Shown piece after piece: positions 28,799-44,179 of a stretch of 64,000 nucleotides of DNA (position 1 is its first letter; every line of letters starts with the position of its first letter). Position numbers and translations under genes: made by a program. Under the pieces are notes generated by a model that was not told the origin of the DNA, ran no database searches, and saw only the letters and a list, made by a program, of their open reading frames with translations. Source of the DNA: Pyrenophora tritici-repentis (lineage: Eukaryota > Ascomycota > Dothideomycetes > Pleosporales > Pleosporaceae); contig NC_089395.1 of NCBI RefSeq assembly GCF_003171515.1, forward strand, positions 62,001 through 126,000, written 5' to 3'.

Positions 28799-29131
28799 TC
28801 AGTGACCGATATTTACCCAGCAATCAGAGTCGAAGCCATTACTGCAGGCAAGCTTGAAATCGCAATTATTGAGCCCAGTGGTAAAAAATCCATCGATCTT
28901 GCAGTATTTGTGCCCGTCTTCGAAGGTCTCTACCGAGGTTTTGCCGCTGAACCAGTTTTGGCAGACAGATACGGTTTTAGTGTCGTCGATATTACCACAG
29001 CGGCAATAACGGTACCCAGCGCAGGCATTGACCATGGCCGGCGCGACGGCAAGGATAGCAAGAGTAGGAACCTAGTTATTATTAGCTAAGTAAAAATAAA
29101 GGAAGATGAGATATGGTAGTTATACCTTCAT
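28799..29131 (-). CDS. Small secreted 8-cysteine protein A (candidate effector)
   Basis: Exon 1 is 29131-29126 (Met-Lys only); the intron is 29125-29072 (54 bp, GTATAA donor, GCTAATAA branch-like site, CTAG acceptor, phase 0); exon 2 is 29071-28799. The 92-residue product starts MKVPTLAILAVAPAMVNA, a clear signal peptide, with mature protein from CAGYRYCRC. Its eight cysteines follow C-x5-C-x-C-x11-C-x19-C-x12-C-x5-C-x7-CW. The gene at 42267 shares C-x5-C-x-C, DG(H/R)xYC, NNC-x5-C and final CW, plus the tiny first exon and phase-0 intron. TATATA lies near 29252, about 120 bp upstream. Secretion and disulfide bonding are inferred; function is unknown. An unspliced reading from 29035 would lose the signal peptide. 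The weak donor makes the first exon the least certain part. Confidence 0.82.
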
Positions 29132-29517
29132 TATAAGGTGAAGGAGTAGCGATAATGTGCGTATTTGTTTGTTCGGAGATGGAAGGAAGTTCTAATGTAT
29201 TTTGTTGACTGATGTGCCAAACAAAAAGCTAATGGAATAGAGGCAATATATACCTGTGACGATGAAGAGATACAATTCGTAAGTCTAACAGCTCAACGAG
29301 GTAGCGCCGAAAGTCTGTGTATCCCTAGGTGATCTAACACGAGAGAAGGCGCTCGGGCGAGAGTACCCCAACACGAGGACGGCGGTAATCCCTAGGCGAT
29401 CCAACACGAGAGAAGGCGCTCGGGCGAGAGTACCCCAACACGAGGACGGCGGTAATCCCTAGGCGATCTAACACGAGAGAAGGCGCTCGGGCGAGAGTAC
29501 CCTAACACGCTTACTAG
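29132..29517. repeat. 67-bp tandem repeats from a degraded TPR region, plus 5' flank of protein A gene
   Basis: Units begin at 29331, 29398 and 29465 (67 bp apart) and each encodes EKALGREYPNTRTAV or a close variant, the core of kinesin-light-chain-type TPRs in fungal NLR proteins. 67 is not a multiple of 3, so no long frame survives. 29132-29330 is the upstream region of the minus-strand gene. Confidence 0.8.
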
Positions 29518-29573
29518 CACAGAAGGCAACAATCAAATAAGTGGGGCTTAGGATTCAATATTTGATTTGTTTG

Positions 29574-29799
29574 TGTCAGATTGTGATGGGTTATCAAAGA
29601 CGGGGATAATAGTATAATAATATGATTGGGATCGATTGTATTGTTCTGGTCTGATCTCGTGTGTTCTGTTGTCCAACGCTGTTCGATCAGTTGGGTCGCG
29701 GTGGATTGTGCGCGCTGACTAATTTAACTGATCCACAGAATCCACAGCTCCGAACACCCGGATTTTGTCCACCACCCAAAATATGCCCATATTCTGACA
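29574..29799 (-). repeat. 3' LTR of Copia-2 (226 bp)
   Basis: Adjoined by a purine-rich tract on the coding strand (the inverse of CACCCCCTCAGCTC). Confidence 0.95.
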
Positions 29800-29830
29800 C
29801 ACCCCCTCAGCTCAAGAGCCTTGAGCTGGA

Positions 29831-42043: not shown

Positions 42044-42054
42044 ACTGCAAAAAC
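42044..42054 (-). other. Self-priming primer-binding site of Gypsy-1
   Basis: ACTGCAAAAAC (plus strand), one base from the 5' LTR, is the exact reverse complement of GTTTTTGCAGT at 42105-42115 in that LTR. In element orientation the LTR stretch ACTGCAAAAAC lies about 30 bp after a TATA-like TGTATTTAATT (42141-42152), where the RNA should begin. The first 11 nt of the RNA would thus pair with the PBS, as in Tf1/sushi elements. Confidence 0.85.
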
Positions 42055-42055
42055 G

Positions 42056-42231
42056 TGTTAGGGTCTCACAGGATCAGATATTTAAAACTGTGTTGAATTA
42101 CAAAGTTTTTGCAGTACCGAGTTTCTAAGAAACTTCGGTAGAATTAAATACATGTGTGGGGCAGCGGGGCCTCGGCACCCGAGGCGCCGGCGTGGTCCGT
42201 GCTCAGAACACCAAGGTTCCAAACCATGACA
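42056..42231 (-). repeat. 5' LTR of Gypsy-1
   Basis: One mismatch to 35214-35389. Contains the TATA-like box and predicted RNA start (near 42115, minus strand). Confidence 0.94.
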
Positions 42232-42266
42232 TTACAGTTCAAGCAACGACCTGTATCCTTATCATC

Positions 42267-44179
42267 ATGAAGTTCCTAGTAAGTAGAAAAAGTTTATATT
42301 ATTATTATTATATTTCCATTAGAGTCCTGTATCAGTCGGTGACTATGTAGGACTTTGGCTAAGCCGTTCTATGTATGTTGTTCAATATGGAGTTTCTATA
42401 GGTCTTGTACAATTTGGAGGATAGTTGCGTAGTCCAATTTCCGAGCTAGTCTTCCGTTGGCGCGGGTGCTAAAGAGCAGTGTGGTGAACAGAAAGAGATG
42501 TAACAGCGAGCTCTTTGCGAAAAGAAATATTGTTTGTAGTTTTATACAGTGTCTGTCTGTTGTTTTGTGTAGGCGTCTGTATATAGGGATCTACAAGAGA
42601 GAGAATAGATCTATACATCTAGTGCCTGGTCGATGTTTTGCTCGTGCGTGTGCTAGTGAAAGCAGGTGCTGGAGCGGTTCGGTATATGGGGTCGGTATAT
42701 CGAGTCGGTTTAGGGCGTTCGGTAGAGAGGGTATTTGGTGTAGGCGTCTGTATATAGGGATCTACAAGAGAGAGAATAGATCTATACAGCTATTGCCTAG
42801 TCGATGTTTTTGGGCGTTTTGGTGTAGGCGTCTGTATACAGGGATCTATTATAACCTAACAATAATAGACCTATACAGCTATTGCCTAGTCGATGTTTTG
42901 CTCGTGCGTGTGCTAGTGAAAGCAGGTGCTAGAGCGGTTCGGTATATGGGGTCGGTATATCGAGTCGGTTTAGGGCGTTCGGTGGAGAGGGCGTTTTTGG
43001 TGTAGGCGTCTGTATATAGGGATCTACAAGAGAGAGAATAGATCTATACAGCTATTGCCTGGTCGATGTTTTGCTCGTGCGTGTGCTAGTGAAAGCAGGT
43101 GCTAGAGCGGTTCGGTATATGGGGTCGGTATATCGAGTCGGTTTAGGGCGTTCGGTAGAGAGGGCGTTTGGTGTAGGCGTCTGTATATAGGGATCTACAA
43201 GAGAGAGAATAGATCTATACAGCTATTGCCTGGTCGATGTTTTGCTCGTGCGTGTGCTAGTGAAAGCAGGTGCTAGAGCGGTTCGGTATATGGGGTCGGT
43301 ATATCGAGTCGGTTTAGGGCGTTCGGTGGAGAGGGTATTTGGTGTAGGCGTCTGTATATAGGGATCTACAAGAGAGATAATAGATCTATACATCTAGTGC
43401 CTGGTCGGTGTTTTGCTCGTGCGTGTGCTGGTGACAGCAGGTGCTGGAGCGGTTCGGTATATGGGGTCGGTATATCGAGTTGGTTTAGGGCGTTCGGGTA
43501 TAGGTAGCATCTAGATATATAGGCCTATTACTTTGCAGCAATAGAGATATATACCTAAGGAAGAGCCGTTGCTCTGTCGGTTTCGTAGAGGGTGCCTTCG
43601 ATCGAACATCTAAAATCAGTTGGCGCACGGGCCATTTGCAGAGATTTCTCTCAACTAAGGCCAGGTAACAACTCTGTCAAAGTTGCAGCGGCCAGCGCGC
43701 CCGCCACAACGCCTGCACGCAAAAGCAGACGTTGGAAACTGATTCTAGGAAGGCATTTCAATGGAATTGAGATGAAAAAAGGGTAATCCAGGACCTTTTT
43801 GTCATCTCGAAAAGTTGGTGTTCGATGAGAAAAAGTTTATAGTTTACTTTAAATAACTAGTCTAATATGCATTCAGACTGCCGCCACCCTCTTTACCTTA
43901 CTTCCTGCCTTGAGTATGGCTTGCGCCGTCTATGATAATTGTCTTTGCCAAAACAGCGATGGCAGTTTCAACGATGACGCTACCCAGAAAGCATGTGCCA
44001 ACTTCAGTGGAAATTATGACGTGTTTGATGACGGCCGTCACTACTGCGCTGCCGCGGCTATCCATGCTGGAGCAGCTGGAGGAGCGATTTTGTCCTTCAA
44101 CAACTGTCGCTTCAGGGAAACCTGTAACAATCATGGGGCCACTGGAGACTCTAACTGCTGGGCTAAAGAGTGGGCTTAG
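42267..44179 (+). CDS. Small secreted 8-cysteine protein B (candidate effector), LINE in its intron
   Basis: Exon 1 is 42267-42278 (MKFL). The intron is 42279-43876 with GTAAGT donor, TCTAAT branch region (43861) and ATTCAG acceptor, phase 0; exon 2 is 43877-44179. The 104-residue preprotein begins MKFLTAATLFTLLPALSMA, a good signal peptide, then CAVYDNCLC. Cysteine pattern C-x5-C-x-C-x15-C-x16-C-x19-C-x5-C-x10-CW, matching protein A (28799-29131). Without the LINE (42299-43827) the intron is 55 bp, normal for the genus-level pattern seen here. Gypsy-1 ends 35 bp before the ATG, separating the gene from its likely promoter (35105-35213). The coding sequence is undamaged. Expression now may depend on the LTR or be lost. 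Function is unknown. Confidence 0.85.
42299..43827 (-). mobile_element. LINE-1B, 5'-truncated LINE of the LINE-1 family, in an intron
   Basis: Flanked by 14-bp duplications AGAAAAAGTTTATA (42285-42298, 43828-43841). On the minus strand it ends GGACTCTAATGGAAATATAA with TAA repeats at 42299-42315. It contains the 3' UTR repeats and only the last codons of ORF2 (as at 6910-6980). It is antisense to gene B, so it brings no sense-strand splice sites of its own ORF. Confidence 0.95.
42567..43505 (-). repeat. 171-bp tandem repeats in LINE-1B 3' UTR (six unit starts)
   Basis: GTGTAGGCGTCTGTATAYAG begins at 42567, 42738, 42822, 43000, 43171 and 43342: spacing 171, 84, 178, 171, 171. One unit is truncated. 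LINE-1 at 6323 has only two. Confidence 0.88.

What the first reader, a model, noticed from the sequence alone, without database searches (positions are those of the whole stretch)
28799..44179. Divergent pair of paralogous 8-cysteine secreted-protein genes hidden in a transposon stack
Genes at 29131-28799 (minus) and 42267-44179 (plus) encode preproteins of 92 and 104 residues. Each has a signal peptide split by a tiny first exon (2 and 4 codons) and a phase-0 intron. They share C-x5-C-x-C, DG(H/R)xYC and NNC-x5-C-x(7,10)-CW. Removing the MITE, Copia-2 and Gypsy-1 by their target duplications leaves about 0.6 kb between the start codons, so this was a bidirectional gene pair. Simple ORF calls miss both start codons because the signal peptide is spliced. 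I do not recognise the family; an effector or antimicrobial role is possible but unproven.
Basis: partly seen in the sequence, partly recalled or inferred. Interest (0 to 1): 0.88.

Follow-up and report, generated by a model that had tools for sequence, protein, structure and literature searches.

The report
Paired KP6-like secreted proteins, transposon-split copy
Two related small secreted fungal proteins that resemble a known antifungal killer-toxin fold are encoded back to back near a chromosome end of what looks like the wheat tan-spot fungus; the copy in this window has been pulled apart by transposons, but two undisturbed copies lie elsewhere in the same genome.

Summary
Genes at 29131-28799 (-) and 42267-44179 (+) encode homologous 92- and 104-residue preproteins with 8 cysteines each (BLASTP E 2e-11; hhalign probability 98.9%).

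This copy of the plus gene is probably impaired.

Best reading: secreted KP6-like effector or antimicrobial proteins, probably co-expressed, perhaps acting together. Expression, pairing and target are unproven. The species (Pyrenophora tritici-repentis) rests on a 100% protein match.

The parts
29126..29131 (-). Minus gene, exon 1 (ATG AAG)
   Evidence: same exon in the C5 and C6:151k copies
29072..29125 (-). Minus gene, 54-nt phase-0 intron (GTATAA...TAG)
28799..29071 (-). Minus gene, exon 2 with stop; rest of leader and 74-residue mature 8-Cys protein (92-aa preprotein = P0015)
42267..42278 (+). Plus gene, exon 1 (4 codons)
42279..43876 (+). Plus gene intron, 1598 nt here against 55 nt in the undisturbed copy
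42299..43827 (-). 1529-bp LINE-like insert inside the intron (tandem units about 171 bp apart, (TTA)n at its low-coordinate end); 14-bp flanking duplication 42285-42298 / 43828-43841
   Evidence: 40 places match its 308-bp end, the number that was scored of 72 candidates; like sequence lies 3' of an RNase H-bearing ORF at 8178-6910
43877..44179 (+). Plus gene, exon 2 with stop (104-aa preprotein, 85-residue mature 8-Cys protein)
29321..29506 (.). 67-bp tandem repeat array upstream of the minus gene; in this genome nearly confined to the upstream regions of this gene family
   Evidence: 10 of the 11 matches listed lie beside these genes
29507..29573 (.). MITE, left part (rest at 34921-35036), split by the Copia element
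29574..34915 (-). Copia element inside the MITE; 226-nt LTRs 100% identical; TSD GTTTG 29569-29573 / 34916-34920
34921..35036 (.). MITE, right part
35214..42231 (-). Gypsy element; 176-nt LTRs 99% identical; duplication TTAC 35210-35213 / 42232-42235; ends 35 bp before the plus-gene ATG

Best explanation
A divergently transcribed pair of paralogous genes for small, secreted, disulfide-rich proteins of the KP6-like fold. SHOWN by sequence: homology, 8 cysteines in the same order, an N-terminal hydrophobic leader split by a short phase-0 intron, an 833-bp intergenic region in the undisturbed subtelomeric copies, and coding constraint (a third paralogue differs mostly at synonymous sites). PREDICTED: a beta-alpha-beta-beta-alpha-beta sandwich like the KP6 killer-toxin subunits and Zt-KP6-1, with better support for the plus protein. 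INFERRED: one bidirectional promoter co-expresses both; the proteins are exported, oxidised and act outside the hypha on plant or competing microbes, possibly as partners. The window holds the third, TE-split copy: Copia and Gypsy moved the genes 13 kb apart, and a LINE-like fragment enlarged the plus-gene intron about 30-fold, so its plus gene is probably impaired, while the same coding sequences persist in two intact copies.
Confidence: 0.75

Rival explanations
1. The two proteins form a heterodimer that kills or inhibits competing fungi: a chromosomal counterpart of KP6, whose alpha and beta chains both resemble the plus-gene model.
For: The plus protein matches both KP6 chains and the minus protein KP6 beta; KP6 comprises two polypeptides (PMC11119588, passage); a 2025 paper whose title says that Z. 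tritici effectors related to KP4 and KP6 inhibit fungal growth was seen only as a reference entry. Relatives in Periconia and Penicilliopsis.
Against: KP6 is made as one Kex2-processed precursor encoded by a dsRNA virus segment; here there are two nuclear genes and no KR or RR pair in P0015 or P0001. No interaction test.
Confidence: 0.25
2. A host-directed effector pair that works like Avr2-SIX5 or SIX8-PSE1/PSL1: the divergent promoter fixes stoichiometry and one KP6-like protein helps the other act on or in plant cells.
For: Those pairs are head-to-head and SIX5/PSL1 are modelled as KP6-like (PMC10942635); TE insertion in the first intron of PSE1 homologues is reported (PMC8190069, passage), as in this window; many relatives are in genera of plant pathogens such as Colletotrichum, Septoria, Plenodomus and Macrophomina; P0016 differs from P0015 at 11 of 70 mature positions and 0 of 18 leader positions.
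Against: In the Fusarium pairs the partner is ToxA-like, here it is a second KP6-like paralogue. SIX5-like subgroups have four or six conserved cysteines (PMC8715435, passage) against eight here. The locus tag of P0016 (Ptr902) suggests isolate 90-2, listed as non-pathogenic race 4 (PMC9594970); the link tag-isolate is inference.
Confidence: 0.3
3. Plain duplicate genes: an old inverted duplication left two paralogues head-to-head, each acting alone, with no functional pairing.
For: The two proteins are only 37% identical; the third paralogue lies 3.5 kb from the minus gene on C5 without such a partner.
Against: The pair is kept in all three copies, 833 bp apart where undisturbed, and both frames are intact; but the three copies are recent duplicates, so this is one observation rather than three.
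Confidence: 0.35
4. CFEM-domain proteins, as the truncated UniRef name of P0009 ('Extracellular memb...') may suggest.
For: UniRef labels of P0009 and P0010 as cut in the listing; eight cysteines.
Against: CFEM is not among the 7 families listed for the 22 members at E up to 10; the fold prediction is alpha/beta, whereas CFEM is, from recall, helical with another cysteine spacing.
Confidence: 0.02

Closest known systems
KP6 killer toxin alpha/beta subunits (Ustilago maydis virus; PDB 1kp6, 4gvb)
   Different: Two separate nuclear genes with introns, no KR/RR pair, no sequence match found.
Zt-KP6-1 and other proteins with a solved or predicted KP6-like fold (BAS4, AvrLm6, AvrLm10, Ecp28, CbNip1, SIX5)
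   Different: No sequence comparison with them was made here; eight conserved cysteines with the motifs DG(H/R)xYC and DS(N/D)CW mark this subfamily.
Divergent effector pairs Avr2(SIX3)-SIX5 and SIX8-PSE1/PSL1 (Fusarium); AvrLm10A-AvrLm10B (Leptosphaeria, title only)
   Same: Neighbouring small secreted-protein genes (head-to-head in the Fusarium pairs), one KP6-like, short common intergenic region, TE insertions nearby.
   Different: Here both partners are paralogues of one family; the Fusarium pairs combine a ToxA-like with a KP6-like protein.
ToxB and other MAX effectors (same fungal species)
   Same: Small, secreted, multi-copy.
   Different: MAX has two three-stranded beta sheets (PMC8715435 passage); here two helices and four main strands.

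Membership tests
KP6-like fold | beta-alpha-beta-beta-alpha-beta sandwich with two helices | tested here: met
KP6-like fold | same, for the 92-residue protein | tested here: inconclusive
KP6 killer toxin proper | one precursor cut by Kex2 into alpha and beta | tested here: not met
   Two genes on opposite strands; no KR/RR in P0015 or P0001.
KP6 killer toxin proper | kills sensitive fungi | not testable with these tools
   needs bioassay
SIX5/AvrLm10A-type pair | head-to-head gene neighbours with a short common upstream region | tested here: met
   833 bp between ATGs in the undisturbed copy L008
SIX5/AvrLm10A-type pair | partner of another fold (ToxA-like in Fusarium) | tested here: not met
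   Partner is a paralogue of the same family.
SIX5/AvrLm10A-type pair | protein interaction and help with cell-to-cell movement | not testable with these tools
   needs binding and in-plant assays
SIX5-like sequence cluster (RemEff) | detectable profile similarity to SIX5, AvrLm6, BAS4 or CbNIP1 | not tested
   Those sequences were not fetched.
CFEM (PF05730) | CFEM profile match | tested here: not met
   not listed for any of 22 members at E up to 10
Secreted protein | N-terminal hydrophobic leader with small residues before Cys1 | tested here: inconclusive
   Mean hydropathy of the leaders 1.69-1.76 and ...NA or MA before C in all three paralogues; no signal-peptide predictor available.

The most novel reading that the evidence does not exclude
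The pair is a split, chromosomal KP6-type heterodimer: two KP6-fold subunits co-expressed from one bidirectional promoter, assembled after secretion, and kept as an amplifying subtelomeric cassette in which transposons disable individual copies. That would be a KP6-KP6 version of the Avr2-SIX5 principle and a link between killer toxins and paired effectors.
Probability: 0.18. Interest if true: 0.7.

Novelty: new variant of a known kind. Interest (0 to 1): 0.45.

Why it matters
It gives a family without a Pfam model a likely fold, a compact gene pair in which shared-promoter and heterodimer ideas can be tested, and a clear case of one effector-like locus in intact and transposon-broken states within one genome. 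It also shows how such genes are easily mis-annotated: the start codon sits on a tiny exon, and one deposited Ptr protein (P0005) runs into another frame halfway.

Tried and rejected
Pfam on both proteins: no family at E up to 10; on 22 members 7 families, best E 0.0026, none matched by more than 2 members. PDB by sequence: one chance match for the plus protein (E 0.23), none for the minus protein or for profiles. Phage collection: none. BFVD: no match with E under 0.001; the best named matches are small iridescent-virus proteins, probability 0.94-1.00; not pursued. CFEM and MAX/ToxB identity: rejected (see above). Assembly artefact for the three copies: unlikely, since the window copy has its own inserts and the C5 and C6:151k copies match only over 4453 bp and differ beyond it, but raw reads were not available. 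The isolate was not settled: 40.9 Mb agrees with the M4 reference in PMC5913888 (passages), but contig number (41 vs 50) and longest contig (matches up to 9.87 Mb on C1; about 7 Mb in the paper) differ. Literature for KP6 in Pyrenophora tritici-repentis: 5 papers hold both terms; I saw passages of all 5 (and for PMC10942635), and none of the passages describes this pair. (17 papers, 10 listed) and the listings showed no title on it; the locus tag search found 0 papers. The paper on Ptr effector structures (10.1099/mgen.0.000872) and those on Z. tritici KP6-like proteins, KP6 alpha, Magnaporthe secretome folds and AvrLm10A are not held, so absence from print is not shown. P0005 was left out of alignment A5; P0015 is the window's own protein.

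Full report
WHAT IS THERE. The window is G000:C6:62001-126000 of a 40.9-Mb genome in 41 contigs. C6 starts with CCCTAA repeats, so the two genes lie about 91 and 106 kb from a telomere. The plus-gene protein is identical to residues 10-113 of a protein of Pyrenophora tritici-repentis (P0001, PtrEW4_012192), so the organism is very probably this wheat tan-spot fungus; that is inference from protein identity. The coding sequences are open.

THE TWO PROTEINS ARE HOMOLOGOUS. BLASTP gives E 2e-11; hhalign of a 3-sequence against a 13-sequence alignment gives probability 98.9% and E 1.4e-17. The local alignment score of the mature parts is 105; none of 2000 shuffles reached it (maximum 58), nor any of 2000 shuffles with all cysteines held in place (maximum 75).

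COPIES IN THE GENOME. A protein search finds 8 places: three of the minus gene, three of the plus gene and two of a third paralogue, 63% identical to the minus gene (the same 8 loci with P0001 and P0017). C5:56755-61207 and C6:154502-150050 are 100% identical over 4453 bp and hold the pair without Copia, Gypsy or the intron insert. There the start codons are 833 bp apart and the introns are 54 and 55 nt (measured on L008). The exon sequences of both genes are identical in 3 of 3 copies. Telomere-proximal segmental duplication is reported for this species (PMC5913888, passages).

TRANSPOSON HISTORY OF THE WINDOW COPY. Compared with L008, the window has (i) a 5342-bp Copia (29574-34915, TSD GTTTG, LTRs 100% identical) inside a 183-bp MITE that the undisturbed copies also carry, (ii) a Gypsy (35214-42231, TTAC duplication, LTRs 99% identical), and (iii) a 1529-bp insert at 42299-43827 between two copies of a 14-bp target sequence, in the intron of the plus gene. 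Like sequence also lies 3' of an RNase H-bearing ORF on the same strand at 8178-6910, its low-coordinate end is a (TTA)n tract, and its 308-bp end matches 40 places at 97-100%, the number scored of 72 candidates: a 5'-truncated LINE-like fragment is the simplest reading, though the name is inference. The plus gene of the window thus has 35 bp of its own upstream sequence and a 1598-nt intron, and is probably impaired; this is expected, not shown.

EVIDENCE THAT THE GENES ARE REAL. The three paralogues have introns of 54, 55 and 59 nt with GT and AG ends and a CTAA[CT] site at offset 40-41. Minus gene and third paralogue differ by dN 0.30 against pS 0.72 (dS 2.46, close to saturation, 56 synonymous sites), a ratio near 0.12: purifying selection on the protein. 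Of 11 genome matches to two units of the 67-bp tandem repeat, 10 lie beside these genes, including upstream of the third paralogue, where the repeats are in the opposite orientation relative to the gene while the MITE is in the same orientation.

FAMILY. Three protein searches gave 39 distinct sequences (P0001-P0039; P0015 is the window's own, P0005 a frame-changed model), among them Periconia macrospinosa, several Colletotrichum, Plenodomus tracheiphilus, Septoria linicola, Macrophomina phaseolina, Penicilliopsis zonata and metagenomic proteins. C-x5-C-x-C is present in 37 of 39. No Pfam family fits.

HOW IT MIGHT WORK. The leaders would send both proteins outside; eight cysteines would lock the sandwich; one 0.6-0.8-kb region would drive both genes. 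In Fusarium, divergent pairs of a ToxA-like and a KP6-like protein act together (PMC10942635, passages and section 16); close head-to-head placement is proposed to keep stoichiometry, and TE insertions have broken PSE1 homologues, also inside their first intron (PMC8190069, passages). Against this, SIX8-PSE1 binding was not seen in yeast, and another paper calls the expression of such pairs divergent rather than co-regulated (PMC13293125, passage). KP6-like folds are common among effectors (PMC9632046, PMC10462633, passages), and their link to killer toxins makes antifungal action plausible too. I put host-directed pairing at 0.30, antifungal heterodimer at 0.25 and unpaired action at 0.35; these are readings of function under the main statement, which is about what the proteins and the locus are.

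NOVELTY. KP6-like effectors and divergent effector pairs are both known. A head-to-head pair of two paralogues of one 8-cysteine KP6-like subfamily did not appear, but key papers were not held, so this is a statement about those searches only.

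Noticed in passing
window 45140-45391 (+): ORF of 83 aa with a leader-like start 0.96 kb downstream of the plus gene, present beside all three plus-gene copies; no Pfam match. Its C-terminal part resembles two places on C3, so it may be a truncated further secreted protein.
   Followed up: partly
L004 1424-1761 (C5:63.3 kb) and L005 (C6:56.6 kb): Third paralogue with 10 cysteines in its mature part. 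Upstream it has the family's 67-bp repeats in inverted orientation and 162 bp of the same MITE at 100% identity in the same orientation; this mixture is unexplained.
   Followed up: partly
L008 601-1427 (undisturbed intergenic region): RIP-like dinucleotide indices (TpA/ApT 1.41, (CpA+TpG)/(ApC+GpT) 0.81) while both exons 2 look unmutated (0.83/1.23 and 0.87/1.45); the stretch is short and partly repeat, so weak.
   Followed up: no
window 1643-5652 (-) and 46189-51476 (+): Matching ORFs show two near-identical copies of one retroelement-like sequence in opposite orientation on either side of the stack.
   Followed up: no
window 8192-11062, 20896-23165, 25046-27773: hAT-type transposase ORFs; the first has the hAT dimerisation domain, the others were judged by eye only.
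   Followed up: partly
window 62310-63194 (+): ORF with a helicase C-terminal domain, RecQ-like by eye, a kind often found near fungal telomeres (recalled).
   Followed up: partly
BFVD entries W8W1F8, A0A068QK58, G0T528: Uncharacterised small proteins of invertebrate iridescent viruses match the KP6-like model with Foldseek probability 0.94-1.00 although E is above 0.001.
   Followed up: no
P0005 (A1F99_141290): A deposited Ptr protein of the plus gene shares its first half and then runs in another frame: a broken allele or a sequencing slip.
   Followed up: no
P0036 (CSHISOI_11659): A Colletotrichum relative bears a UniRef name beginning 'Cyanovirin-N domain' in the listing; not tested.
   Followed up: no
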